NCBI GenBank assembly: GCA_017993055.1 | Contig: JAGONM010000009.1 | Coordinates: 1 to 64,000, forward strand | Source of the DNA: Armatimonadota bacterium | Lineage (GTDB): Bacteria; Armatimonadota; UBA5829; DTJY01 | Direction: 5' to 3' | DNA length: 64,000 bases | Shown here: positions 3,050-52,107 of the stretch, in pieces | Layout: each line of letters starts with the position of its first letter | How positions within the stretch are numbered: the first letter of the stretch is position 1 | The notes under the pieces: generated by a model | Database searches by the model: none | What the model was told of the DNA's origin: nothing | The model's input: the letters and a program-made list of their open reading frames with translations, nothing else | Made by a program: the position numbers and the translations under genes

Positions 3050-5281
3050 CTACACCACCTGCTGCGTGCGACCGATCACCATGTCCTGCCAGTTCTTGTC
3101 CAGGGTAGCGAATCGCGCCGACCATCCAGCGATGCGGACCGACAGGTTAGGGTACTTCTCGGGGTGCCGCTGGGCATCCAGCAGGAGTGCCGTATCCACG
3201 ATATCCACGTGCATGAAGCACCCGCCGAGTTTCACGAAGCTCTTCATCAGCCCCACGAGCGCCTTGACGCCCTGCTCGCCCTTGACCGATGCCGGCAGGA
3301 TCTTCAGCTCGAGAGTGCCGACGTTGGGCAGGTTGGTGTAGTCCATCTTGCAGTAAGACTTGAGCATCGCCGTCGGGCCTTTGCGATCAGTCCCGGGCGA
3401 CGGGGAGAAGTTCGTGGCGAGTATCTCGCCGAGGTGGTGGCCGTCGGCGGTCGCCTTGCGATACGCCCGCCACTCGATCTCGCGGCCGAAGGTGCTGATC
3501 CCCGCCGGGCGGAGGACGCCGTTGCGATCTTTGACCTCTGAGGCCATCCGGGTGTAGTCGTCGAAGACGCGCTTGACCATCGCATCGGCCTCGTCGTTGT
3601 CGTTTCCGTAGGTCTCGACGCGGTTGAGCACCAACTGCCGGAGGTTCTCCTGCCCCTGCCAATCGGAGCGCAGGATGTCGATCAACTCGTTCAAGGTGAG
3701 CCGCTTCTCCTCGTAGACGAGCTTCTTGATCGCGAGCAGGCTGTTCGCCGTGTTGGCGATCCCTCCGATGTGCGGCGCGAGGGCAGTGTAGACCGGCCCG
3801 CGGTCCCAGTAGCCGCGCCCCTTCTCGATGCAGCCCTCGACGAGCATCGACACGACCGGCGGTGCGGCCCCTCCGAGGCAGTATCCGTCCGCGCCAGCAT
3901 TGTGAGCGTCAACCGCCGCCCGGAGTTCCCTGCAGAACCCGGCGTATAGGCTCTCGAAATCGGTGTACTCGGGATGCTTGTCGCCATCGAGCATCAGCGC
4001 CTGCTGGAGCATCTTGAGCGAGTCCTGCGGCGAGTAGATGAAGTTCGACTTCCCGGGGATGATGGCCTCCCAGCAGCCGTCGTTGGCGAACCGTCGGGCC
4101 TCGTCGAGCGGGTAGCCGAACTTGACGAGCGCGGCGATGACTACCTCCTCGTTGTAGACGGCCACGATACCGCCGCCGTGGCGCTGAACCTCCGCGATGC
4201 GCTTGAGCAGCTTCTCCGGCGTGTGCTTGTTGAGCCGGACCGCGATCGGGTAGTCGCTGATATGAAGCTCCTCGACGACGTCGAGCACGAGGTAGGTCAC
4301 CTCGTTGGTGACCTCCTTCCCGTCAGCATCGATACCCGCCAGGATGATGTTCTGGTAGTGCTGAGCGTCGCCGCCCCAGTAGCCGCCCGCGCCGCCGATC
4401 CACTCCGTGCCCTTGATCCAGAAATGGGCGAGGTCTTCGCGCGCCTCGTCGAGCGTCGTCGTCCCCTGCTCCAGGTCGCGCTTCAGGCAGGGCCAGAGCA
4501 TCTCGTCGATGCGGCCGATTCCCGACCAGTTGCCGCAGAGACGCTGGAACGCATACGCGAACCAGAGCGACTGGACGGCCTCCGCGAACGTGGTCGGCGG
4601 GTTCTCGGGGACGTTCGCCAGATTGCGGAGAACGCGCTCGTAGCCGGACCTCTCAGCGCCGGTGGACTCGGCGATCAACTCGCGGAGGTGGCTGATGTTG
4701 CGCGCGTGCCATCGGTCAGCGGCGTCGAGGCAAGTCTTCATGGCGTTCAGCAGATCGACACCCTTGGCATCGAGGCCACCCCGTGCCAGTCGGACAGCGA
4801 TCTCCTTGCGGATGCCCTTGTATCCGACGCGAAGCACCTTGTCGAAGCCGAGGGTGGTGTGGCTGACGCTGCCTTTGTTGTAGATCGGGACCGCATGCCC
4901 GACCGCCTCGGAGAATGTCGCCGATCCGACGATCCGCTCGCCTGGGAGGATGCGCAGAGGCGCGCGCTCGGCGATGAACATGATCGCGTGGGCGCACTTC
5001 ATCTCCTCCGACGTGCCAGTGACGTCTATCAGGTCCTCGATCTTGACGCCTGAGGGGACCATCGAGCGCCCGAACTCACCGCTCAGCCCGCGCTCGGCGA
5101 GGGAGCGGGTGACGTCCGACAGCCGCTTCGGAGTCGGGAAAGGCGCCTCGATGCTCAGAGTCTTTGCTGTGCTCTCCGCCTCCGCCGACTCGCCCGTGCT
5201 CAGGTAGAACAGTCCGCCGCCAAGCGCGACCATCCCGGTCTTGATGAAGTCCCGCCGGTCGATGCCATTGTCCTTCGCCAT
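3050..5281 (-). CDS. glycyl radical enzyme with Tat leader
   Basis: This 743-residue protein belongs to the pyruvate formate-lyase/dehydratase superfamily. The active-site loop is NDGCWE with Cys403 and Glu405. A GCxE loop fits the dehydratase/lyase branch rather than true PFL, which has adjacent cysteines. The glycyl-radical motif is RIAGWSARF with Gly719 near the C terminus, as expected. The N terminus has a textbook twin-arginine signal: DRRDFIK at residues 8-14, a hydrophobic stretch of about 15-29, then AEA as a possible cleavage site. That is unexpected for an oxygen-sensitive enzyme that must be activated by a cytosolic partner. ATG 5281 has GGGAGG 7 bases upstream; upstream in-frame codons show no family similarity. 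A TATAAT lies at 5320-5315 without a good -35. The substrate cannot be named, and the W in GCWE differs from the usual V or I. Confidence 0.9.
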   Translation of the reverse strand: MAKDNGIDRRDFIKTGMVALGGGLFYLSTGESAEAESTAKTLSIEAPFPTPKRLSDVTRSLAERGLSGEFGRSMVPSGVKIEDLIDVTGTSEEMKCAHAIMFIAERAPLRILPGERIVGSATFSEAVGHAVPIYNKGSVSHTTLGFDKVLRVGYKGIRKEIAVRLARGGLDAKGVDLLNAMKTCLDAADRWHARNISHLRELIAESTGAERSGYERVLRNLANVPENPPTTFAEAVQSLWFAYAFQRLCGNWSGIGRIDEMLWPCLKRDLEQGTTTLDEAREDLAHFWIKGTEWIGGAGGYWGGDAQHYQNIILAGIDADGKEVTNEVTYLVLDVVEELHISDYPIAVRLNKHTPEKLLKRIAEVQRHGGGIVAVYNEEVVIAALVKFGYPLDEARRFANDGCWEAIIPGKSNFIYSPQDSLKMLQQALMLDGDKHPEYTDFESLYAGFCRELRAAVDAHNAGADGYCLGGAAPPVVSMLVEGCIEKGRGYWDRGPVYTALAPHIGGIANTANSLLAIKKLVYEEKRLTLNELIDILRSDWQGQENLRQLVLNRVETYGNDNDEADAMVKRVFDDYTRMASEVKDRNGVLRPAGISTFGREIEWRAYRKATADGHHLGEILATNFSPSPGTDRKGPTAMLKSYCKMDYTNLPNVGTLELKILPASVKGEQGVKALVGLMKSFVKLGGCFMHVDIVDTALLLDAQRHPEKYPNLSVRIAGWSARFATLDKNWQDMVIGRTQQVV

Positions 5282-8560: not shown

Positions 8561-9196
8561 TCAGCCGTTCTGCCTGCGCAGCCGCAGGATCAATCCATCG
8601 ACCCAGACATCCATCACGGAGTATACGAGCCAGAGGAAACCGGCAAACGCGGTGACGATGAACATCAGCCCATGGTTACGGAGCGCACCCATGACTGACA
8701 TCCACACATACTCCGGCCTGGTGATGATATCCCAGCTGTTCAGCCGCAGGATGAGCCCGAGGTAGACGCCAAGCGACATCAGCAGGAAGAACGGGATCGC
8801 CCAGACCCACGGAGTGAGACGAACCTGCCGCATCAGCCAGACGACGGGCCGAATCGCGAGGGCGAACGTCAGCACACCGATCCCACTGTAGAACATGTAG
8901 AAGAGGGTGTATGTCATGAGTTCGACCGCGGCCGTCCTACTGACATGCCACTCCGAATAGAGGTTCGAATAGCCGACCCTCGCGAGGAAATGGCGCCACT
9001 CGGTCAGCAGGTAGCAGGTGTTCGGCATGAACGCGAGCCACACGATACCGAGGAGAACCATCGCGACCTTGACGGGGATCGTTCGTCGGCGCGGGATCCT
9101 GTAGAGGGTATACATGGCATACCCTGCGACAACCGGAATCAGCGCCAGAAAGGTGTTCCAAGTAACCCAGCGAATGAGGTAAGGGCTCGCATACAT
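8561..9196 (-). CDS. DUF1361 integral membrane protein
   Basis: This 211-residue protein has about six predicted membrane segments. It has the family hallmarks WLAFMPNTCYLLTEW after the second or third helix and LRLNSWDIITRP before the last pair. The function of DUF1361 is unknown. ATG 9196 is chosen because upstream in-frame sequence is neither hydrophobic nor family-like. The ribosome site is weak, and the stop of the upstream gene is 62 bases away, so transcription may be shared with it. Confidence 0.75.
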   Translation of the reverse strand: MYASPYLIRWVTWNTFLALIPVVAGYAMYTLYRIPRRRTIPVKVAMVLLGIVWLAFMPNTCYLLTEWRHFLARVGYSNLYSEWHVSRTAAVELMTYTLFYMFYSGIGVLTFALAIRPVVWLMRQVRLTPWVWAIPFFLLMSLGVYLGLILRLNSWDIITRPEYVWMSVMGALRNHGLMFIVTAFAGFLWLVYSVMDVWVDGLILRLRRQNG

Positions 9197-39770: not shown

Positions 39771-39862
39771 CGCGCCGAAGTGGCGGAATGGCAGACGCGC
39801 ATGGTTCAGGACCATGTACCCGCAAGGGTGTAGGGGTTCAACTCCCCTCTTCGGCACCAACC
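39771..39862 (+). repeat. attL: 92-bp direct repeat containing tRNA-Leu
   Basis: It is identical over 92 bases to 52016-52107. Identity starts 3 bases before the tRNA and ends 3 bases after its CCA. Flanking bases differ on both sides. Confidence 0.9.
39774..39859 (+). tRNA. tRNA-Leu (CAG), left copy
   Basis: This 86-base tRNA has acceptor stem GCCGAAG/CTTCGGC, discriminator A and encoded CCA. The anticodon loop TTCAGGA sits between CATGG and CCATG, giving CAG, which reads CUG. The long variable arm (around GTACCCGCAAGGGTGT) marks a class II leucine tRNA. The T-loop region is GGGGTTCAACTCCCC. Confidence 0.95.
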
Positions 39863-39945: not shown

Positions 39946-39988
39946 AAGCGTACTTGGTTCCGCGAATTTACGCAAGCGTACTTGGTTC
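39946..39988 (+). repeat. arm-type integrase sites beside attL
   Basis: AAGCGTACTTGGTTC occurs at 39946-39960 and 39974-39988, spaced by 28 bases, between the tRNA and the integrase gene. The same sequence recurs near attR (51899-51986). The arrangement fits binding sites for the N-terminal domain of the integrase. Confidence 0.7.
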
Positions 39989-40025
39989 ATTTCCGGCCTG
40001 AATACTCGCAATCGAGGTGCCAGAA

Positions 40026-40976
40026 ATGAACGGTCAGGTTGTCCGAATCCATGCCAGTCTAGCCGACGACATGAACGCCGCAGTTAACGGGTTCATGAAC
40101 TACTGCCGGGCGAAGAACCTTTCGCCGAACACCATCTCCTATTACCGCTACAGGCTGCAGGCTTTCGAGCGGTTCTGCGCGGATTCTCCCGTCGCGCCCG
40201 AGAACGTCACTCCCGAGAGAATCAGGGAGTTCCTTACCGCTGAGGCCGAGGAGAAAAGCGCGACGACAGCCAATCATGCCTACCTCACGCTTCAGGCATT
40301 CTTCAACTTCCTGGTGAGCGACGGTTTCATCGCCGAGAACCCTATGCAGAGGGTGGACCGCGTGAAACGCCGCAGGACGGTCATAGAGACCTTCACTCAG
40401 GAACAGGTCGAGCGCATTCTCAGCAGTTGCGGGAAGGACTTCGTCGGCGTCAGGGACCGGGCCATGATTCTCGTCATGGTAGATTGCGGACTGCGGGTCA
40501 GCGAACTGTGCGGCTTGACGATGGACGACATCTCATGGACCGAGCAGACGCTTCTGGTGGTCGGCAAGGGTGACATCGAGCGGGTCGTGCCGTTCGGTCA
40601 GGCAGCGAGGCAGGCGTTGACTCAATTCATGGCACGGCGCGGGGCACTGGACACCAAGACGGTCTTCGTCTCGACTCTCGGGCAGCCGTTGAACCGTCAC
40701 CGTGCGCGGGACATCATCAAGGCGCGATGCAAGGAAGCGGGCGTCACCGGGGTCAGATGCTCTCCGCACACCTTCAGGCACACCTGCGCGGTATGGTATC
40801 TGCGGAACGGCGGGGACGTGTTCTCCCTGCAGAAGCTACTGGGTCACAGCGACCTGACCATGACGCGGCGATACTGCGAACTGTCTCAGACCGATGTGGC
40901 AGATAAGCACCGGCTCTACTCGCCTGCGGACAAGCTGACGAACAAGAACACGTCGGGAAGGAAGCGGTTGAAGTGA
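40026..40976 (+). CDS. int: tyrosine recombinase (integrase)
   Basis: This 316-residue site-specific recombinase should insert and excise the element at tRNA-Leu. The N-terminal SAM-like domain (FMNYCRAKNLSPNTISYYRYRL) is followed by the catalytic domain with Arg in CGLRVSELCGL, Lys in VVGKGD, HTFRHTCA, LLGHSDLTMTRRY and the Tyr nucleophile in that last block. It resembles XerC/D in length. GAGGTG is 6 bases before ATG 40026; a GTG at 40017 is also in frame. It lies 167 bases from attL and may be reached by transcription from the tRNA promoter. Confidence 0.93.
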   Translation: MNGQVVRIHASLADDMNAAVNGFMNYCRAKNLSPNTISYYRYRLQAFERFCADSPVAPENVTPERIREFLTAEAEEKSATTANHAYLTLQAFFNFLVSDGFIAENPMQRVDRVKRRRTVIETFTQEQVERILSSCGKDFVGVRDRAMILVMVDCGLRVSELCGLTMDDISWTEQTLLVVGKGDIERVVPFGQAARQALTQFMARRGALDTKTVFVSTLGQPLNRHRARDIIKARCKEAGVTGVRCSPHTFRHTCAVWYLRNGGDVFSLQKLLGHSDLTMTRRYCELSQTDVADKHRLYSPADKLTNKNTSGRKRLK

Positions 40977-41055: not shown

Positions 41056-41261
41056 TAGTCCTGCGACTTCGGCCTTAGCAGGTTTCGCTTCTGGAGCGAC
41101 TTGACCAGCTTCCACGCACGCACTTTCGCTTCCTTGCTTAGGACCGGATACCGCCGCTCCGGTGACTCGTTCGACGACTGCTCTCCATCGTCTGTTTCCC
41201 CCGCTGAGAATGACTCCTTCGTGTCGTCAGATTGCTCATCGAACCCCTTGCTCGGACTCAC
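41055..41261 (-). CDS. small protein coupled to the restriction gene
   Basis: This 68-residue protein starts at GTG 41261, which overlaps the TGA of the restriction gene (GTGA at 41261-41258). It has an acidic serine-rich first half (DDTKESFSAGETDDGEQSS) and a basic helix at the end (SKEAKVRAWKLVKSLQKRNLLRPKS). No family is recognised. Coupling suggests that it assists or controls the restriction enzyme. Confidence 0.55.
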   Translation of the reverse strand: MSPSKGFDEQSDDTKESFSAGETDDGEQSSNESPERRYPVLSKEAKVRAWKLVKSLQKRNLLRPKSQD

Positions 41262-44056
41262 AAGTTCACCGCCTTCTGAATCAGGTCCGGCACGTCGGAG
41301 GGGTAGTGGGACACATCCCATGCCCACCTTCCGAACCGGCCGTCCTGGTTGACCGCCTGCACCCATTCCGCAAGGTACTGCCGCTTCACCCTGTCCTTCT
41401 GGCTGTCCTGCCCCTTCACCTCAAGGACGAGGTGGACTCCGGTGACGAGCCTGATGATGAAGTCCGGGCGGTACTTGTGGACCACTCCCTCGAAGGTGTA
41501 GTAGACCTCGAAGCCGAGGTGGTCATTCTTCACCCATGCGTCAACCTGCGGGCTGTGGTCAAGGTGGAAGGCTTCGCTCGCTTCCCATGTGCTGTCATAG
41601 ACACAGCGGTTAATATGCGACCGCAGGGTGAACTCGTTCGGCTTGCCGGTATACCAGGTCCGCATATCGTCGGTGGAGCGGATTGGGTAGTCCTGGTCGA
41701 AGACGGGGACTATGCTCTCCGTGTTCTGGGAGCGAATGTCATGGAATACATGCTCCACCACCTTGCCCATGTTCAGCGTGAGCAGTATCCGCCTCTTCAA
41801 AGGGTCATGGTAGAACAACTCAGGGGTAATCCGCACCTTATCAGAAGCAAGGAACCTCTCCACGAGCCGTATGACCTGCGCGAGGAGATACTCCCTGCTG
41901 CCGGTCCATGTGGGGTTCACCTGGTCGTATACCCTTGCCGCAGTCTCAAAGGCGATTCTCTGGATTCTGAACTTCCTGCCGAGTTCGGCAAGCTCGATTT
42001 CCGTCATGTCGCCGATATGCGGCTTACCCTCAAGGACGGCGGCCAGTTCCGCGTGCGTAATGGTGGTAAAGGCGTCAATCGCCAATGGCGCTACGGCATC
42101 CATATCGAGGGTCAGAACCGGCTTAAAGGTGTGGTCAATGCGGATGATGTTCGGGAAGCTGATTTCGTACTGCCGCTTCTTGGTGTCCGGTTCGATGGGA
42201 GTCTTTGGCGGTGGAGGCGGTGGAGGCGGACCTCCGATTTCCTCATGCGGCAGGAAGGTGAACGGAATCCCGAAGATATTGACGTGCTCGGCCTCGAACC
42301 TGCCGGTCTCAGGGTTGACCTCATACGACGTGCGGCGCAGACCTCTCCCCACCACCTGCTCGCAGAGAAGCTGGCTTGAGAAGGCACGGAGACCCATTAT
42401 CTGAGTGACCGTCTTCGCGTCCCAACCTTCCGAAAGCATACCGACCGATATGACGTTCTGAATCTGCTCGCCCGGCCTGCCGACTTTTCCTACCGTGTCA
42501 ACGCACTGCCTCAGACTCTCCGCAAGCTCCTTCTTCGTCAGCTTTTTCCCGTTCTCCGGTTCTTCGTCGGAATCGCTATCGTCCGGGGTGACCGTGACCG
42601 GCTCCTCCTGGGATTCGGCCATAGCAAGTACCTTGGAGTCTATGTGCAGGGTCTTGTCAGGAGCGCAAAGCTCCTCGATGAGAACCGCGTTGTGGTCAAA
42701 GGCGTACTTAATCCGTGCTGCCGTCTCTGTCCGGTTGGCTACGGTTATCATTACAGGCGGAGTCTGGAACCCGCGTTCCCTCCACGTCTCAGCCGTCTCC
42801 AACCAGTCCTTGCCGAGAAGGTAGTAGGCATTGGTCACCAGGCTTGGAAGCGTCTCGTGCTCCTGCGCCGGTTTGTTCAGGTTATCCTGCACCTCGGAGT
42901 CTTTGTAGATATGGTAGAGCTTGGACTTGTACTGCGGGTCAAGCTCTCCGTCACTGCGAACAACCATTCTGGGAGTCTTCACCAATCCCGACTCGATAGC
43001 ATCCCAAAGCCCGAAGTCGCTGACAACCCAGTCGAAGAGAGCCTGGTCATCGCTCTTCTTGCCGGAGGGAGCGAAGGGAGTCGCTGAGAAGTCAAAGCAG
43101 GCGAGGATACCCCGTGCCTTGTGTATCCGGTCCAGACCGCCGACCCACTTGGTAGCTTCCTCGATTTCGTCCTTCTTGACGCCTTTGACCTTAGACTCTG
43201 CCGGGATTCTCCATGCGTGGTGAGCCTCGTCGTTTATCACCAGCAGGTTTCGGCAGTTGGCAAGCTCCCCGAGGACATCCCGCGCATACGCTTCCAGGGA
43301 CTTGACTCCCCGCTTGTCAACGCTCCGCCTCTTCGATGCCTGCGCTTCGGTCTCCCAGTCGAGCTTGTGCCAGTTACGGATGAGCACCTTGCCCTGCCTG
43401 AGCTTGTCTACCAGTCCCTGCGGTACAATCTCGAACTCCCCATAGAAGTTGTTCCTGCCGCTCGGCTGCAGTACCTCAAGACGGCGTCTCACTGTCAGTC
43501 CGGGGGCGACAACAAGCACATGCCTGGAGAACCGCGTATCCTGGGGATACGTGACCTTGTTCAAGACCTGCCATGCTATCAGCATCGCCATGACGACGGT
43601 CTTCCCCGTGCCAGTGGCGAGCTTGGAGCAGAGACGCCGGAACTCCCCACCGTCGGAAGGAATCTCGATTCCGACCTTCTCCGACTCCGGGGCTTCGATG
43701 AGCCATATCAGCGTTTCCATGGCGTCCAACTGGCAGAAGAAGAACGTGCAGTCACTGTCCCGGGCCTGGAGGTCGTGCCAGTGTTCGAGCAGACGGCGGG
43801 TTATGCCGGTGACGCCGGAGTATCCCGCCTCTCGCCATGCCTTCACACGTGGGCGAATCTGCTCCACCAGCGGCAGAGGCACGAAGATTCCTGGGTCATC
43901 GAACCGGCGTGAACCCGGAGTGGCGACCACGTATCCAGCCGGACGCCTGCCCTCCGCAAGCGAGAAGAGCCGTGTGGAGGGGTCATGCCTGTAGTGCTGG
44001 CTGGGTACGTCATACGGCGAGTTGATGATAAGCTGTGCTATCGTCCGGCTGCCCAT
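41258..44056 (-). CDS. res: type III restriction enzyme, helicase-nuclease subunit
   Basis: This 932-residue protein is the Res-like subunit. It has Walker A LATGTGKTVVMAMLI, a DEAH-type box VINDEAHHAW, the later helicase motif EQVVGRGLRRTS, and a C-terminal PD-ExK-like nuclease (VHLVLEVKGQDS preceded by DFIIRL). It needs the Mod partner to find its site and uses ATP to translocate. ATG 44056 overlaps the methyltransferase stop (TGATG); a GTG at 44059 is the alternative. The proline run around IGGPPPPPPPPKTP is a flexible linker. Confidence 0.88.
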   Translation of the reverse strand: MGSRTIAQLIINSPYDVPSQHYRHDPSTRLFSLAEGRRPAGYVVATPGSRRFDDPGIFVPLPLVEQIRPRVKAWREAGYSGVTGITRRLLEHWHDLQARDSDCTFFFCQLDAMETLIWLIEAPESEKVGIEIPSDGGEFRRLCSKLATGTGKTVVMAMLIAWQVLNKVTYPQDTRFSRHVLVVAPGLTVRRRLEVLQPSGRNNFYGEFEIVPQGLVDKLRQGKVLIRNWHKLDWETEAQASKRRSVDKRGVKSLEAYARDVLGELANCRNLLVINDEAHHAWRIPAESKVKGVKKDEIEEATKWVGGLDRIHKARGILACFDFSATPFAPSGKKSDDQALFDWVVSDFGLWDAIESGLVKTPRMVVRSDGELDPQYKSKLYHIYKDSEVQDNLNKPAQEHETLPSLVTNAYYLLGKDWLETAETWRERGFQTPPVMITVANRTETAARIKYAFDHNAVLIEELCAPDKTLHIDSKVLAMAESQEEPVTVTPDDSDSDEEPENGKKLTKKELAESLRQCVDTVGKVGRPGEQIQNVISVGMLSEGWDAKTVTQIMGLRAFSSQLLCEQVVGRGLRRTSYEVNPETGRFEAEHVNIFGIPFTFLPHEEIGGPPPPPPPPKTPIEPDTKKRQYEISFPNIIRIDHTFKPVLTLDMDAVAPLAIDAFTTITHAELAAVLEGKPHIGDMTEIELAELGRKFRIQRIAFETAARVYDQVNPTWTGSREYLLAQVIRLVERFLASDKVRITPELFYHDPLKRRILLTLNMGKVVEHVFHDIRSQNTESIVPVFDQDYPIRSTDDMRTWYTGKPNEFTLRSHINRCVYDSTWEASEAFHLDHSPQVDAWVKNDHLGFEVYYTFEGVVHKYRPDFIIRLVTGVHLVLEVKGQDSQKDRVKRQYLAEWVQAVNQDGRFGRWAWDVSHYPSDVPDLIQKAVNL

Positions 44057-46938
44057 CACTCCACCTCGATGATGCGTAGGCTCTCGATACCCCGGTCATC
44101 CACTATCTTCACGGCGACCTTCCTGTAATCGCCGGGGTCGAAGGGGAGTGATAACGTTCCCCTGTATGCCTCGATAAGCTCCGGGTCTATCTCCGCCTTG
44201 AGTGTCTTTGCGAGCTTCGACCATCCGTCCTTCTCGCCTGCCATCGGGAAGAAGACCTGTCGGGCGAAGAGACTCCTGCCGTCATAGTCCGTATCGAGAA
44301 GCCAGACCGCGATTCTCTCCGTGCCGCCGGACTCCACCTGCCCGGTCCTGGTATTGTAGTAGTCGAAACCGGCGACCTCCACCTGATACTTGCCCTCATG
44401 CTCTCCGTCTTTGATTTGCTCAAGTCTGACATCCGGCTGACCGATGAGCCAGAAGCTCTCATTGCTGGCGCGTTTCTTCTTCAAGTCTTCCGTCAGGAGG
44501 TCGGTGCTCATCTGCGCCTTGAGGAGGGTCACGCCGGTCCACTTGGTTTCGTCTATGTCCTTGGCGGCTTCCGGGTCGAACTGGAAGGCGGCGAAGACCA
44601 CTATCTTCGGCTTCGGCCATGTGTTCTGGAATTCATCGAGCGCGAGGGACACCTGCCTCTGCTCTAGCGGGGCATGTTCGGGTCCGAAGGAGATAACGAC
44701 CTTCTGAGGTGTCTCTTCCTTCGTCTCCGCCTCCGCGTGAAGCCATCGAGCGCCGGGAATCGGCTCGACGCGGGAGAACTGAATCGTCTGCCCGCCCTTG
44801 CCCCTGATGCCTGTCTTGAGAAGCTCGTCACGCCATTCCGCCTGCCGGAGCGTCTCCCCGGAGCGGGCGACCGACTGGTCCGCCTCCACGCCTTCCGGTG
44901 CGGGGGAACCCACCTCGGAGAGAGCCTTCACCGCCGGTGCAGGGACCGCTTCAAGGGTGAACGGACCTGTGACCCGGAGCTTTGACTTCTCGATTATGGG
45001 CTGGTCGTAGAGGGTCTCAGGCTCGGCATTCTTCTGAATGCTCTGGTCCATCTTCGTCTGCATCTCCCGCTTGAGCTTTCGGAATCTCTCGAACGGTTCT
45101 CTTGTCCCTTCCGGCCAGTCCTCAGGAATCTGGAAGGGGACTTCCCACTCCTCCAACGACAACCCAGCGACCGCATTAAGCTCTTTCAATGCCGTTTCTA
45201 TCGCCGGATGCTGACGCTCATGGATGCGGTCAATCTCCTCGTTGTTGGCGATAGACTTCAGGGTTATGTGCGGCACGGTCTTGTACTTGAACCCGCTCCC
45301 CACTCCTTCCTCCGGGCGGGCAAGCTCGTAGTAGTCGAAAGGCTGCACCATTAGCCTCTGCTTTGCGAGGGCGATGGACACGCGGGAGCTATCGCAGGTT
45401 ATCCACCGCCGTCCCCACTGCTCCGCAACGTATGCGGTCGTTCCCGAGCCACATGTGGGGTCGAACACGAGGTCACCGGGGTCGGTAGCTAGCAGCATGC
45501 ACCGCTGGATGACTTTGGAGTTAGTCTGAACTACGTACATCTTGTCACGCATGAAACCACTGGCAGTATCTCGCCAGTCTGCGGTTATGGGCACGCAAGG
45601 GAAATCGTCCAAGAATCTCACATAGAGCAACAGGCTCTCAGATGCATGGCATCGGCCTGCTTTCTGGAGACGTGGTATTCCTTCTGCGGTCGTTGACCAT
45701 CCCCGATTGCCTGTAGGGAAGAATGTCCGTCCGTCGTGCTCGACAGCAAAGTGCATAGCGGTACCTGGTCCCGATGGTCTCCCCTGGCGTTGAGAAGTCA
45801 TATCTCCGAGCATAAACGGGCGAGCTCTACGGTCGAACCCAGGGTCGTCCAGGTCTTCCTCTCGGAGAGTAGCTGTCGTTCCGTCGGGTAGTAGCGCAAA
45901 CCTGTACCCGGTTCCGCCGTCGCGCAATACCTGTTTCATCTGAAACCCCCGGCGAAACTTCAACTGCTCACGGTTCCTGCCGTACCAGAGGAGATAGTCG
46001 GTCGGATTCGCAAGGAAACCCGAGGTCTGACCTGTTGTGGTTGCGAAGGCAATCAGAGCGACAAAGCAACCAGCCCCAAACACCTCATCCATTATGCATC
46101 TGACGCGGTGTATGTTCCCATCCGATATTTGCACGAAGACGCTCCCGCTCTCGGAAAGGAGTTCCCTTGTAAGCCAGAGCCTGTCTCGCAGGTATGTCAT
46201 GTAGGAGTGAATCCCAAGCTCCCAGGTATCGCGGAAGGCTTTCAGCATCTCCGGCTCCTGGGTCAAATCCTCATCTTTGCCGTCCTTTACTTCCCGCTTG
46301 TTGATGAACGGCTGGAAGTTGCTGCCGTAGGTGATACCGTAGGGCGGGTCTATGTAGACCATCTGCACCTGACCGCCAAGCCCCTCCTTCTCCAGCAGGG
46401 AGTTCATCACGAGCAGGCTGTCACCGGCTATGAGGCGGTTTGACCACTGGTGGGAATGTTTGTAGAACTCAATGGCCTTCCGTATCGGCAGGTTCTCGGT
46501 GGGAGTCTCGAACAGTGACGGCTGAGCATTCGGCTCGGGCTTCTTGCGAACGGCTTCGATGATGGTCCGGGGGTCAATGCGCTCGTGGACGTGCAGGGAG
46601 ACGGTATCCACCTCGAAGGTGGTCCGCTCGGCCTTCCCTGCCCAATTGAGGTAGGGTTCCTGCCGCTTCTTCAGGTCCAGTAGCGCCTTCCGTGCGGTCT
46701 TCAGAGCCTCCACTGCTTCTTCCGGGTCGGTGGTATCGGCGGCCAACCCGTCGTCAATGATTCGCTCGACTTCGCTCCGCTGGGAGTCGAACTGGAGGGC
46801 GGGGTCAATGTGTGGGTCATAGGCATATACCTTCTTCCCGCCGTCCGGGTCGTTCTTGTCATCCACCAGACCGACCGGGGGATTGTTGACGCGTTCCTTG
46901 TCCTTGTGGTCGTACTGCTCGATGGACCTCTTTGGCAT
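44056..46938 (-). CDS. mod: type III-like adenine DNA methyltransferase
   Basis: This 960-residue site-specific methyltransferase should protect the element and recognise the target for Res. The catalytic motif DPPY is at residues 197-200 and comes before the SAM-binding motif FDPTCGSGT (about residue 480), the order of the beta class used by type III Mod proteins. A target-recognition region of about 250 residues lies between them. The C-terminal 350 residues form an extra domain. GGAGG lies 11 bases before ATG 46938. An inverted repeat at 47022-47046 may control it. Confidence 0.9.
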   Translation of the reverse strand: MPKRSIEQYDHKDKERVNNPPVGLVDDKNDPDGGKKVYAYDPHIDPALQFDSQRSEVERIIDDGLAADTTDPEEAVEALKTARKALLDLKKRQEPYLNWAGKAERTTFEVDTVSLHVHERIDPRTIIEAVRKKPEPNAQPSLFETPTENLPIRKAIEFYKHSHQWSNRLIAGDSLLVMNSLLEKEGLGGQVQMVYIDPPYGITYGSNFQPFINKREVKDGKDEDLTQEPEMLKAFRDTWELGIHSYMTYLRDRLWLTRELLSESGSVFVQISDGNIHRVRCIMDEVFGAGCFVALIAFATTTGQTSGFLANPTDYLLWYGRNREQLKFRRGFQMKQVLRDGGTGYRFALLPDGTTATLREEDLDDPGFDRRARPFMLGDMTSQRQGRPSGPGTAMHFAVEHDGRTFFPTGNRGWSTTAEGIPRLQKAGRCHASESLLLYVRFLDDFPCVPITADWRDTASGFMRDKMYVVQTNSKVIQRCMLLATDPGDLVFDPTCGSGTTAYVAEQWGRRWITCDSSRVSIALAKQRLMVQPFDYYELARPEEGVGSGFKYKTVPHITLKSIANNEEIDRIHERQHPAIETALKELNAVAGLSLEEWEVPFQIPEDWPEGTREPFERFRKLKREMQTKMDQSIQKNAEPETLYDQPIIEKSKLRVTGPFTLEAVPAPAVKALSEVGSPAPEGVEADQSVARSGETLRQAEWRDELLKTGIRGKGGQTIQFSRVEPIPGARWLHAEAETKEETPQKVVISFGPEHAPLEQRQVSLALDEFQNTWPKPKIVVFAAFQFDPEAAKDIDETKWTGVTLLKAQMSTDLLTEDLKKKRASNESFWLIGQPDVRLEQIKDGEHEGKYQVEVAGFDYYNTRTGQVESGGTERIAVWLLDTDYDGRSLFARQVFFPMAGEKDGWSKLAKTLKAEIDPELIEAYRGTLSLPFDPGDYRKVAVKIVDDRGIESLRIIEVE

Positions 46939-47021: not shown

Positions 47022-47046
47022 GATACAGGACGGCCATTCCTGTATC
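47022..47046. promoter_or_regulatory. inverted-repeat operator before mod
   Basis: GATACAGGA (47022-47030) and TCCTGTATC (47038-47046) are perfect 9-bp inverted repeats 7 bases apart, about 85-110 bases ahead of the mod start. Next to it, three near copies of GGATGGAA with a period of about 10 bases lie at 47047-47074. Confidence 0.5.
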
Positions 47047-47218: not shown

Positions 47219-47248
47219 TTGACACAGCACCACTGCTGAGCTTATAAT
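47219..47248 (+). promoter_or_regulatory. consensus promoter of the ncRNA candidate
   Basis: TTGACA (47219-47224), 18 bases, TATAAT (47243-47248): both hexamers match the sigma70 consensus exactly. No coding frame follows until 47670. Confidence 0.85.
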
Positions 47249-47254
47249 GTCGGT

Positions 47255-47468
47255 AGTTCGGAGGCAGTAGGTAGAGCAGTAGACTCCCGGCGTCCGAGCG
47301 GCCAAAACAGAACAGTCTAGCGCGTGCGCTTCGCGGGTGCTTACAGCATCGTCTGCCGGAGTGCCGGACACTTTGAGTCGGCATTACCTAAGGGCACGCG
47401 GTCAAGGACAAATAGGATGCCTGTGCGTCAGTCTGACGCGCGTCCATTCTTGACGGCGTGCCCTTTTT
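47255..47468 (+). ncRNA. candidate structured small RNA of the mobile element
   Basis: About 214 bases run from the expected start of the consensus promoter to an intrinsic terminator. No ORF with a ribosome site is present. Local helices are visible: a bulged stem TGCC/GGCA with GAC/GTC around 47360-47382, a GCGTCA/TGACGC hairpin at 47425-47439, and the long terminator stem that encloses it. No known RNA family is recognised. It could be an antisense, regulatory or defence-related RNA; the role is unknown. Confidence 0.6.
47392..47468 (+). terminator. extended intrinsic terminator of the ncRNA
   Basis: GGGCACGC (47392-47399) and GTCAAG (47401-47406) pair with CTTGAC (47449-47454) and GCGTGCCC (47456-47463), a 14-bp stem with one G-G mismatch. 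TTTTT follows. The loop holds the inner hairpin at 47425-47439. Confidence 0.85.
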
Positions 47469-47499
47469 GTATGTATGGAGGCTGATTGTTGGTGGTTGT

Positions 47500-47576
47500 C
47501 ATAAGTAGAGTCTCTGCCAAACTTTGGCGTGCTCAAAATGGCAACATGCATGCTCAACCAAAGTCCATAAGTAGAG
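47500..47576. promoter_or_regulatory. nested repeats ahead of the HTH gene
   Basis: CATAAGTAGAG occurs at 47500-47510 and 47566-47576, 66 bases apart. Between them ACTTTGG (47521-47527) and CCAAAGT (47558-47564) form an inverted repeat. They are probably operator sites for the HTH protein or for replication control. Nothing else is recognised up to 47657. Confidence 0.5.
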
Positions 47577-47669
47577 CTTGGCGGCATAGGACAGGCAGGG
47601 CTGGTGTCGTCAAGGCCTCTACAAGATGGGGGCGAGAGTCGCTCTCAAATACACACTGGAGGTGACGTA

Positions 47670-47873
47670 ATGCAGAGTGGTAGTAGCGAGACGGTGGGCG
47701 TCCGCGAGGCTGGCGCAAGGCTAGGCGTTGGGCGATGCACGGTCTACAAGCTCGCGGCGACGGGTTGGCTCGGTCCGGTTCGGGTTCTTCGAGTCGGGCG
47801 GCAATTGCGCGTTCCCCTGCGGGAACTCGACCGGGCTCTCGGGATTCGCGATAAGGAGGAGGAGGTGGTGTGA
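47670..47873 (+). CDS. small HTH protein, excisionase-like
   Basis: This 67-residue protein is a single MerR/excisionase-type winged helix: VGVREAGARLGVGRCTVYKLAATG followed by the wing VRVLRVGRQLRVPLREL. It could direct excision with the integrase or regulate the early operon. GGAGGTGA lies 5 bases before the ATG. It is the first gene of a rightward operon through the primase-helicase. Confidence 0.82.
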   Translation: MQSGSSETVGVREAGARLGVGRCTVYKLAATGWLGPVRVLRVGRQLRVPLRELDRALGIRDKEEEVV

Positions 47874-47874
47874 G

Positions 47875-48321
47875 ATGTGCGCGAGAGGAATAGTGTCCCA
47901 CGGTACTCACTTGGCGGCGGGGACCGTGGGACGGAGGCAGACTCCAATGGGTGTGAAGTCTACGTCCGCATTATACCCGACCGGGGTCAATCTGACAAGT
48001 CACGACGGTCGGAGGTCGTTCTCCGCCGGGAAGCTGGTCGGGGGCGTCTTTATCAAGAAGTGCAAGCCCAATCACCTGATGCGTACCCCGCCGGGGATTG
48101 CGATTCAGGAGGATATCGTCGAGCAGTTGCGCGGGCTGGGATGCAGGCAGATTGAGGTTCTAGTCGAGGATGGGAGAGTCTTCGCGGTTGCCTTCGAGGA
48201 CTTCCTCCGCCATGCGTTCCGGCTCGACCGGGGCTTCGGAGCGCAGGAGTGCCTTCCTCTGAAGTATTGGCACGACCCCAACGCTCCGAGGCAGGGGGAG
48301 CTTTTCGAGGAGGCGGGATGA
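47875..48321 (+). CDS. hypothetical protein of the replication operon
   Basis: This 148-residue protein has no recognised family. KLVGGVFIKKCKPNHLMRTPPGIAIQEDIVEQLRGLGCRQIEVLVEDGRVFAVAFEDF suggests a compact alpha/beta fold. It starts 1 base after the HTH gene stop behind a GGAGGAGGAGGTGG ribosome site. It ends overlapping the primase start (ATGA at 48318-48321), so the three genes are coupled. Confidence 0.65.
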   Translation: MCARGIVSHGTHLAAGTVGRRQTPMGVKSTSALYPTGVNLTSHDGRRSFSAGKLVGGVFIKKCKPNHLMRTPPGIAIQEDIVEQLRGLGCRQIEVLVEDGRVFAVAFEDFLRHAFRLDRGFGAQECLPLKYWHDPNAPRQGELFEEAG

Positions 48322-50450
48322 CGACGACCAGGACGGTATCGGCAGACGAGCAGGAGGTCCGCAGGACGGTGGACCTCCTCCTCGAACCCGGGGAGGTCGT
48401 CGAGCTTCGGGCGTTGGATGTGAGGCGAGGAGGGAACGGGTTCCGGTTCACCGCCTCGGGGTACTTCGACGACCGGGAGAAGCTGGTCGAGGAAGCGGTG
48501 AAGCTGTCCCAGAGGGCGAAGGGCGTCTACCTCGTTCCCAATGTCAAGCCGGAACTGTTGGCGCGGGCGAGCAACCGCGTGCGGGAGTGCGGCAAGGGTG
48601 ACTCCTGCACGTCCGACGACGATACTCTCCCCCGGCGGAAGTGGTTCTTTGTTGACTGCGACCCGGTTCGACCGTCCGGCATATCCTCGACCGACCGGGA
48701 GCGCGATGCGGCGGGAGAGAAGGCGCAAGAGGTATGGTCTACGCTACTCGACCTCGGATTCCCCGACCCGGCGATATACGCTTCGAGCGGGAACGGAAGG
48801 CATCTTCTGTATCGCGTTGACCTTCCCGCCGATGATGGCGGACTGCTGAGGCAGTGTCTGGAAGCGTTGGACTTCCGATTCGGTGACGACCGGGTGACGG
48901 TAGACACATCGGTACACAACAGGGCGCGGCCCCTGCGGTTTTACGGCACTGTGAACCGCAAGGGAGACGACGTGCCCGACCGACCGCACAGGGTCTCCCG
49001 GATAGAGTGGACCCCGCCGGACGGCGCGGAGGTCGTTCGGGTCTCCGCCCTGGAGGAGCTTGCGCGTTGGCTCCCGCAGGAAGAACCTTCGCCGACGAAG
49101 CGCACGGCATCCGGGAAGGCGTTCGACCTCGACGGATGGATACAGGAGCACGGCGTCCCCGTCGGTCCTCCGTCGGACTGGAAGGGCGGGAGGAAGTGGG
49201 TCTTCCCGGTATGCCCGTGGGACTCGGCACACAGCAACCGAAGCGCGTTCATCCTTCAGTTCCCGTCGGGGGGGATTTCGGCGGGGTGTCTCCACAACGG
49301 CTGTCGGGGCATGGAGTGGAGGGACCTGCGGCTCATCTATGAACCGGACGCATACGAGCATGAGCACGGGGACTCTATTCCCTGCACCGGTGCAGGGAAT
49401 ATGGGCGAGGCGGCGTCTGAGGTGGTCTCCTCGATGTCCTCGACGTTGACTCACAAAGACCTCGTGACGGGCGAACTTCCGCCCGTTCCCTGGTTGGTCG
49501 AGGGTCTGATACCGAAGGGCGGTCTCTGCCTGTTGGCGGGTGATTCCGGCGTCGGGAAGTCCTGGCTAGGATTTCATCTCGGGCAGACAGTCGCAAGCGA
49601 GCTTCCCTTCCTCGGGAAGTTTCCGGTCGAGAAGGGAGCGGTCCTCTACCTCGACGCCGAATCGGGCGAGAACCTCATCCGGCGGAGGTTCAAGAAACTG
49701 TGGAAGGGTCTGGAGGAAGCGAATCCGGACCTCGACCCGGACATACCTTTCAGCGTTCTGTTGTCGGCGGTGGACCTCGACGCTGACGGCCTCCAGGCGT
49801 TGACCGAGCGGATACGCCGGGAGTGCATCCGCCTGGTCGTGCTCGACCCGATGATACACTTCGGCTCCGCCGACGAGAACGACTCCAGAGCTATGGCATC
49901 CTTCCTCGAAGGCATCCGGCAGGTATCGCGGGATACGGGAGCGGCGTTCCTGCTGGTGCATCACGTCCGCAAGGAGAGCCGACTTGCGAGCAACGCGCCG
50001 GGTCAGATGATTCGAGGCTCATCCGCCATAAGAGCGGTGATGGATTCCGTCCTCTACGTCCGCAGGTTGAACGACGGGAAGCTCCAGGTCGAGCACGACA
50101 AGAGCAGACAGGCGGAGGCGGTCCCCCGCTTCCTGGTCGAAGTGACCGACCCCGACGAGGAGACGACCTCCATCAGCTATGCGGGTGAATCGGGCACGGC
50201 GGAGAGCCGTCGGGAGCTTGCCGAGGAAGCGATACTGCGGACCATTGCGGACACGGGTGGAACGGCGAAACGTCAACTGATAGTCGAGCAGTGCAAGGCG
50301 GAAGGGGTCTCGGAGAAGACCGTCAATAATACGCTTTCGGCACTGGTCGAAGCGTCACGGCTGACCAAGGTTCAACGAGGTAAACCCGTGTTCTACTCGC
50401 TCCCGGAAACAAGCAATAAGAAGGCTCCGATGCTGGAGGAAGAATGGTGA
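48318..50450 (+). CDS. primase-helicase replication protein
   Basis: This 710-residue fusion should start replication of the excised element. The N-terminal part looks like an archaeo-eukaryotic-type primase (KWFFVDCDPVRPSG; YASSGNGRHLLYRVDLP; TVDTSVHNRARPLRFYGTVNRKGDD). A zinc-finger-like stretch (CPWDSAHSNRS to CLHNGC) follows. A RecA-type hexameric helicase core has Walker A LLAGDSGVGKSW, Walker B RLVVLDPMIHFG and sensor LLVHHVRKES. The last 70 residues form a winged helix. An iteron cluster begins 10 bases after the stop, so the gene and origin form one module. Confidence 0.85.
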   Translation: MTTTRTVSADEQEVRRTVDLLLEPGEVVELRALDVRRGGNGFRFTASGYFDDREKLVEEAVKLSQRAKGVYLVPNVKPELLARASNRVRECGKGDSCTSDDDTLPRRKWFFVDCDPVRPSGISSTDRERDAAGEKAQEVWSTLLDLGFPDPAIYASSGNGRHLLYRVDLPADDGGLLRQCLEALDFRFGDDRVTVDTSVHNRARPLRFYGTVNRKGDDVPDRPHRVSRIEWTPPDGAEVVRVSALEELARWLPQEEPSPTKRTASGKAFDLDGWIQEHGVPVGPPSDWKGGRKWVFPVCPWDSAHSNRSAFILQFPSGGISAGCLHNGCRGMEWRDLRLIYEPDAYEHEHGDSIPCTGAGNMGEAASEVVSSMSSTLTHKDLVTGELPPVPWLVEGLIPKGGLCLLAGDSGVGKSWLGFHLGQTVASELPFLGKFPVEKGAVLYLDAESGENLIRRRFKKLWKGLEEANPDLDPDIPFSVLLSAVDLDADGLQALTERIRRECIRLVVLDPMIHFGSADENDSRAMASFLEGIRQVSRDTGAAFLLVHHVRKESRLASNAPGQMIRGSSAIRAVMDSVLYVRRLNDGKLQVEHDKSRQAEAVPRFLVEVTDPDEETTSISYAGESGTAESRRELAEEAILRTIADTGGTAKRQLIVEQCKAEGVSEKTVNNTLSALVEASRLTKVQRGKPVFYSLPETSNKKAPMLEEEW

Positions 50451-51898: not shown

Positions 51899-51986
51899 GA
51901 ACCAAGTACGGTTATCAAGGCAGTGCAAGCGTACTTGGTTCAGCGGAATCGGACCTTTGACAAGCGTACTTGGTTTTGAACCAAGT
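51899..51986. repeat. arm-type integrase sites beside attR
   Basis: AAGCGTACTTGGTTC is at 51927-51941 and, shortened by one base, at 51962-51975. Inverted partial copies are at 51899-51909 and 51978-51986, the latter forming a palindrome with the neighbouring direct copy. The sequence matches the pair beside attL. Confidence 0.7.
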
Positions 51987-52015: not shown

Positions 52016-52107
52016 CGCGCCGAAGTGGCGGAATGGCAGACGCGCATGGTTCAGGACCATGTACCCGCAAGGGTGTAGGGGTTCAACTCCCCTCTTCGGC
52101 ACCAACC
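52016..52107 (+). repeat. attR: 92-bp direct repeat containing tRNA-Leu
   Basis: It is identical to 39771-39862. The right flank contains the terminator that presumably belonged to the original tRNA locus. Confidence 0.9.
52019..52104 (+). tRNA. tRNA-Leu (CAG), right copy
   Basis: It is identical in all 86 bases to the left copy, with the same anticodon CAG and encoded CCA. It is served by a promoter inside the element and a chromosomal terminator 14 bases downstream, so it is probably expressed. Confidence 0.95.

What the first reader, a model, noticed from the sequence alone, without database searches (positions are those of the whole stretch)
47219..47468. Strong candidate ncRNA in the mobile element
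A sigma70 promoter matching consensus at both hexamers is followed by about 214 non-coding bases and a long intrinsic terminator with a nested hairpin. Internal helices are visible. It sits between the R-M and replication modules, where a regulatory, copy-control or defence RNA would fit.
Basis: partly seen in the sequence, partly recalled or inferred. Interest (0 to 1): 0.75.

Follow-up and report, generated by a model that had tools for sequence, protein, structure and literature searches.

The report
Orphan terminated RNA in mobile element
A mobile DNA element in a Planctomycetota bacterium carries a textbook promoter followed about 140 bases later by a strong transcription terminator hairpin, so a short RNA is probably made there, but no relative of it was found and its role, perhaps a gate in front of the element's own replication genes, is unproven.

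Summary
The promoter (47219-47248, 12 of 12 consensus, 18-nt spacer) and the long nested terminator hairpin with five T (47390-47468) are real and far from chance. The host has 35 such perfect promoters against 0 for the reversed control. The stretch is non-coding on both strands by codon usage. The "internal helices" are not supported: all the folding surplus lies in the terminator (z -6.5); the 5' domain folds as its shuffles do (z -0.08). The element is a 12.2-kb tRNA-Leu island (92-bp direct repeats, integrase, type III R-M, HTH - small protein - AAA/primase operon). Six related elements share the core, but the gap before their HTH gene is only 22-167 nt (731 nt here), so they have no room for this RNA. 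No second copy was found in 291 phylum genomes, and there was no hit in Rfam, phage or plasmid records. It is therefore not a conserved copy-control RNA of this element family. Best reading, about 0.45: the terminated leader of the HTH/replication operon, acting as a transcriptional gate. The antiterminator test was not significant. A free-standing sRNA is a close rival. By-product: a 9-10-bp hairpin with changing stem sequence sits between HTH and the small protein in 6 of 7 elements.

The parts
39771..39862 (+). left direct repeat of the element (92 bp) holding tRNA-Leu(CAG)
40017..40976 (+). tyrosine integrase
   Evidence: PF00589 2.6e-44; 65% identical to L034 integrase
41258..44059 (-). 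type III restriction subunit (res)
   Evidence: ResIII 9.6e-08; PADLOC REase_III
44056..46938 (-). type III methyltransferase (mod)
   Evidence: N6_N4_Mtase 2.8e-25; PADLOC MTase_III 2.5e-177
47022..47046 (.). 25-bp dyad GATACAGGA-N7-TCCTGTATC, operator-like, upstream of mod
   Evidence: 9-bp perfect arms
47219..47248 (+). sigma70-type promoter, 12/12, 18-nt spacer
47255..47389 (+). 5' domain of the predicted RNA; no structure beyond chance
   Evidence: z -0.08
47319..47341 (+). small hairpin, base-pair probability about 0.9; its 47321-47331 could also pair with the terminator 5' arm (possible antiterminator, not significant)
47390..47468 (+). long intrinsic terminator: nested hairpin and T5
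   Evidence: z -6.5
47471..47669 (+). stretch between terminator and HTH; no promoter of 9/12 or better on the plus strand; two copies of CATAAGTAGAG (47500, 47566)
47670..47873 (+). HTH_17 / AlpA-like small regulator, first gene of the replication operon
   Evidence: PF12728 2.9e-06; excisionase phrog_66
47893..47932 (+). hairpin between HTH and o2, conserved in position in 6 of 7 elements
47947..48321 (+). small conserved protein 'o2' (no family)
48249..50450 (+). AAA_25 ATPase with weak Prim-Pol N-terminal match (replication)
52016..52107 (+). right direct repeat with tRNA-Leu(CAG)

Best explanation
A strong promoter (47219) starts a transcript at about 47255 that runs toward the HTH-o2-AAA operon and is stopped by a strong intrinsic terminator at 47468, giving an RNA of about 214 nt. 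I think it most likely that this is the 5' leader of that operon: most transcripts end at the terminator while the element is quiet, and read-through (by an antiterminating event, a ribosome, or a factor made on induction) gives the mRNA for the HTH regulator, o2 and the replication ATPase. The short product may act as an sRNA as well, as in the Salmonella prophage RNA IsrK. Shown by sequence: promoter, terminator, strand, non-coding nature, absence of another good promoter before HTH. Inferred: that it is transcribed, that read-through occurs, and that this gates replication.
For: Same strand as, and directly upstream of, the operon. No other plus-strand site of 9/12 or better between terminator and HTH start; the best is 8/12 with an extended -10 at 47496. 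In two relatives the operon has promoter-like sites just before HTH: L084 TTCACA-17-TATAAT, read; L034 9/12 at 3942-3970. So the operon needs a promoter, and here the only strong one is this one. The terminator is far beyond chance. The 5' arm of the terminator can transiently pair with 47321-47331 before the 3' arm is made.
Against: The antiterminator pairing is no better than chance (143 of 1000 shuffles reach -18.0 kcal/mol). The 5' domain shows no structure beyond chance. Six relatives have short leaders and no such gate. The host's perfect promoters with a coding ORF close by have it within 190 nt (20 of 30), whereas several of those without one drive stable RNA genes, which favours an RNA gene over a 415-nt leader. 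A weaker unrecognised promoter in front of HTH cannot be excluded.
Confidence: 0.45

Rival explanations
1. A free-standing small RNA, cargo of this element, made strongly and acting in trans on host or phage transcripts or on the R-M genes; the HTH operon has its own weak promoter downstream of the terminator.
For: Of 30 host loci with perfect promoters that were examined (of 35 sites), 20 have a coding-like ORF within 190 nt; of the other 10, five precede known RNAs (16S rRNA, three tRNA loci, DUF3800-VIII RNA), four are unassigned and one is this site. It lies in the variable cargo part of the element.
Against: No Rfam match even at E 10 apart from a chance one; no relative found; no complementarity to start regions of 12 window genes beyond what 36 comparisons give by chance (two at z -1.8 and -1.6); the 5' domain is unstructured beyond chance.
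Confidence: 0.32
2. A relic or insulator: promoter and terminator left from a lost cargo gene or acquired as a spacer; the terminator merely shields the replication operon from read-through, and the RNA has no function.
For: Orphan sequence, no selected structure in the 5' domain, located at the junction where cargo is exchanged. Insulating terminators are known in Tn916 (PMC11658703, abstract and outline read).
Against: A perfect promoter and a well-formed terminator would be expected to decay if useless; here both are intact.
Confidence: 0.18
3. No RNA: the promoter is silent or repressed and the hairpin is a DNA structure or protein site.
For: No transcript data. CTTGRCGGCG-like sequence occurs in the hairpin arms and in the loop of the HTH/o2 hairpin, and could be a protein site.
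Against: The 5-T tail and GC-rich stem fit an intrinsic terminator; 35 to 0 enrichment of the promoter pattern in the host. The motif's pattern was chosen after seeing it.
Confidence: 0.05

Closest known systems
IsrK sRNA of Salmonella prophage Gifsy-1 (PMC4825925; passages read)
   Same: Mobile-element RNA from its own promoter, ended by a Rho-independent terminator, with genes on the same strand downstream that can be reached by read-through
   Different: No isrK or other Rfam match; different genes; no read-through or trans activity shown here
P4 satellite CI RNA / seqA-seqC immunity, prevents replication-gene expression by premature termination (described in PMC4825925)
   Same: Terminated leader in front of the replication genes of an integrated element
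   Different: No complementary partner segments: longest 5' domain/downstream complement is 6 nt, 199 of 200 shuffles do as well; the terminator here is intrinsic, whereas P4 needs CI RNA pairing
pIP501 repR attenuator (PMC4981023; passages read)
   Same: Termination in the leader of a replication gene
   Different: pIP501 needs a countertranscript (RNAIII, 136 nt); no minus-strand promoter of 9/12 or better lies within 47255-47669
Tn916 terminator T1/canT (PMC11658703; abstract and outline read)
   Same: Terminator in an integrated element that keeps replication genes off
   Different: T1 blocks host read-through; here the terminator follows the element's own strong promoter

Membership tests
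Any Rfam 15 family (incl. isrK, C4 antisense RNA; those two names recalled) | match to the covariance model | tested here: not met
   none at gathering; at E<=10 only PVT1_6, 12.7 bits of 45
Transcriptional attenuator of the replication operon | promoter and terminator on the operon's strand upstream of its first gene, no closer strong promoter | tested here: met
Transcriptional attenuator of the replication operon | antiterminator competing for the terminator's 5' arm | tested here: inconclusive
   pairing present, 143 of 1000 shuffles as good
Transcriptional attenuator of the replication operon | regulated read-through | not testable with these tools
   needs RNA data
Cis-antisense copy-control RNA | made from the strand opposite to the rep mRNA leader | tested here: not met
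   same strand as HTH-o2-AAA
P4-like CI RNA | complementary seqA/CI/seqC segments in the leader | tested here: not met
Type III toxin-antitoxin RNA (features recalled) | tandem repeats between promoter and terminator, endoribonuclease gene next | tested here: not met
   no tandem family in the stretch; next gene is HTH_17
Conserved ncRNA of this element family | present in related elements with covariation | tested here: not met
   absent from the HTH gap of 6 of 6 relatives; single-sequence model matches 1 of 291 genomes, the own one
Hfq-type trans-acting sRNA | transcript and mRNA target | not testable with these tools
   only start regions of 12 window genes compared; no signal

The most novel reading that the evidence does not exclude
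A new, element-specific RNA switch that replaced the divergent regulator gene found in related elements: instead of the zinc-finger-like protein encoded next to HTH in relatives, this element would hold its replication/excision operon behind an RNA gate whose terminated product is also an sRNA.
Probability: 0.08. Interest if true: 0.5.

Novelty: new member of a known kind. Interest (0 to 1): 0.25.

Why it matters
If the gate is real it gives a compact, testable control point for a family of tRNA-integrated elements in Planctomycetota, where I saw no described RNA control of such elements in the seven paper searches that I ran. As it stands it is one orphan sRNA candidate with strong ends and an unexplained middle.

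Tried and rejected
Rfam on the window, on the stretch at E 10, and on promoter-matched loci. DNA homologues: blastn in phages and plasmids, 61 genomes, 28 class genomes, 20 related regions by nhmmer/blastn, exact 22-mers in IMG/VR: none apart from the own copy. A reverse-strand self-match is the terminator palindrome, not a second copy. Single-sequence covariance model in 291 genomes: own copy only; such a model hardly exceeds blastn, so distant structural relatives could be missed.

tRNA-derived or tRNA-like RNA: the promoter spacer resembles a tRNA-Asn promoter in L084. With up to 3 mismatches the pattern hits 12 of 291 genomes; ARAGORN finds tRNAs in 3 of those 12 loci; no tRNA match in the RNA. 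Rejected as generic sigma70 likeness; the pattern was made after seeing the match.

Small ORFs: 26-, 22- and 59-codon ORFs with SD-like sites (47373, 47417, 47486) chain from the terminator to HTH, but their codon scores (-0.49, -0.35, -0.32) equal wrong frames (about -0.39). Single coding windows of 26 and 59 codons also scored as low as -0.49 and -0.34, so very short ORFs are not excluded. A 125-aa minus-strand ORF over the 5' domain scores -0.13, between the two classes, and was judged non-coding.

P4-type complementarity, antiterminator, pairing to 12 gene starts (36 comparisons, only those with z below -1.6 printed: 2): no signal. MITE: single copy in the host. The viral scans for AAA, o2 and integrase relatives found none; o2 in plasmids none. 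The genome-contig scan gave one distant AAA relative, L027, compared only by tblastn. Rows dropped: of 26 o2 matches in 18 genomes 20 regions were fetched, L034 was held already; only the 5 of those with an integrase/HTH/o2 core plus L034 were used for the gap and hairpin comparison.

Full report
What is there. The window lies in a 3.72-Mb genome of the phylum Planctomycetota: a relative found by the AAA protein is Bythopirellula (its phylum is recalled), and the genome search ranks the other genomes by kinship within one phylum. The finding sits in an integrated element bounded by 92-bp direct repeats, 39771-39862 and 52016-52107, each holding an intact tRNA-Leu(CAG) gene. Inside: a tyrosine integrase, type III res and mod on the minus strand, the finding, then an HTH_17/AlpA-like gene, a small protein that I call o2, and an AAA_25 ATPase with a weak primase match.

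Promoter. TTGACA-18-TATAAT at 47219-47248 matches 12 of 12. In the whole genome the pattern with 16-18 spacers occurs 35 times against 0 for the reversed control, so it is a real promoter class of this host. Loci were examined for 30 of the 35. Twenty of the 30 have a coding-like ORF starting within 190 nt. Of the other ten, five precede Rfam-recognised RNAs: 16S rRNA in L133, tRNA in L135, L144 and L148, and DUF3800-VIII RNA in L156 (L135 also has a weakly coding-like ORF at 190 nt, over or behind the tRNA). Four are unassigned (L134, L139, L146, L154) and one is this site, where HTH starts 421 nt after the -10, behind the terminator.

Terminator. Arms 47390-47406 and 47449-47465 are 94% complementary over 17 nt; inner helices 47415-47420/47440-47445 and 47425-47430/47434-47439 have pair probabilities of 0.92-0.94; TTTTTG follows. 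Energy -46.1 against a mean of -24.8 in 300 shuffles, none as good.

The middle. The 5' domain 47255-47389 has -46.2 against a mean of -45.9; 138 of 300 shuffles are as good. So the z of -3.09 for the whole RNA comes from the terminator alone. Only the small hairpin 47319-47341 is well defined in the ensemble (about 0.9). Codon usage gives no sign of a gene on either strand between mod and HTH, with the limits told under Tried and rejected.

Relatives. o2 (profile of two sequences) occurs in 18 of 291 phylum genomes with 26 matches. Six regions share the layout integrase or integrase piece / divergent gene / HTH / o2: L034, L066, L067, L068, L076, L084 (for L067 I saw no integrase ORF in the part listed). 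The integrase of L034 is 65% identical. The divergent gene is homologous among four of the six (L034, L067, L068, L084); in the window res and mod stand in its place. The gap between divergent gene and HTH is 22, 99, 158, 99, 167 and 115 nt (L066, L067, L068, L076, L084, L034; longest-ORF starts) against 731 nt in the window. There is no room for the RNA there. Sequence and model searches found no second copy. The RNA is thus particular to this element as far as searched, in the part of it that varies.

How it may work. The RNA points at the HTH-o2-AAA operon, and no plus-strand promoter of 9/12 or better lies between the terminator and HTH; the best is 8/12. Two relatives have promoter-like sites right before HTH (L034; L084 read). 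I therefore favour a terminated leader, a gate before the replication genes. A candidate antiterminator exists (47321-47331 with 47390-47400), and truncated transcripts fold through it before the terminator closes, but 143 of 1000 shuffles pair as well, so it carries no weight. The P4-type arrangement fails: no complementary partner segments. A countertranscript promoter on the minus strand within the leader is not seen; the nearest strong minus-strand site is 47998-47970, 11/12, inside o2.

Literature seen. IsrK (PMC4825925, passages) shows that a prophage sRNA can be the terminated form of a longer mRNA; its discussion describes P4, where premature termination silences replication genes. pIP501 (PMC4981023, passages) and Tn916 (PMC11658703, abstract and outline) show attenuation and insulation of replication genes. 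Other search results were seen as listings only.

By-product. In the gap between HTH and o2 a perfect stem of 9-10 bp is present in 6 of 7 elements: window 0 of 500 shuffles as long, L034 0, L084 2, L068 3, L076 5, L066 6. The seventh, L067, has 6 bp, reached by 398 of 500. The stem letters differ from element to element (for example GTCCCACGGT, GACCAGAGG and GTCCGGTGG on the 5' side), as expected of a structure kept by compensation; no formal covariation test was run. The position is better conserved than anything in the finding itself.

Verdict. A sound sRNA or leader candidate at the level of signals, ordinary in kind, with no evidence of a conserved function. Interest 0.25.

Noticed in passing
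47893-47932; L034 ~4223-4262; L084 ~8705-8744; also L066, L068, L076: Hairpin with 9-10 bp perfect stem and varying stem sequence between HTH and o2 in 6 of 7 related elements; loop motif CTTGRCGGCG shared by the window and L034 (one letter more there), reversed in L084. Cis-regulatory RNA, replication origin hairpin or protein site.
   Followed up: partly
39946-39959, 39974-39987, 51900-51913, 51927-51940, 51962-51975: Five copies of AAGCGTACTTGGTT (0-1 mismatch; 0.12 expected) near both ends of the element, like integrase arm-type sites.
   Followed up: partly
47022-47046: 25-bp dyad GATACAGGA-N7-TCCTGTATC about 85 bp upstream of mod; possible operator of the R-M genes; further half-site at 49139.
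   Followed up: no
47998-47970, minus strand: Minus-strand promoter-like site, 11/12 (TTGTCA-17-TATAAT), inside o2, pointing back over HTH and the leader toward mod; possible antisense transcript.
   Followed up: no
L156 1537-1601 (host contig C47, about 4681-4745): DUF3800-VIII RNA (RF03075, 67.9 bits) behind a perfect sigma70 promoter elsewhere in the host genome.
   Followed up: no
window 47947-48321 and 26 places in 18 of 291 phylum genomes: o2: a small protein with no Pfam family, in several cases next to HTH and replication genes of tRNA-integrated elements.
   Followed up: partly
L034 2922-3896, L084 7491-8336, L067, L068: Divergent zinc-finger-like protein family next to HTH in related elements; in the window its place is taken by the type III R-M genes.
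   Followed up: partly
L134, L139, L146, L154: Four further perfect promoters of the host without a coding-like ORF within 200 nt and without an Rfam match; possible unrecognised RNA genes.
   Followed up: no
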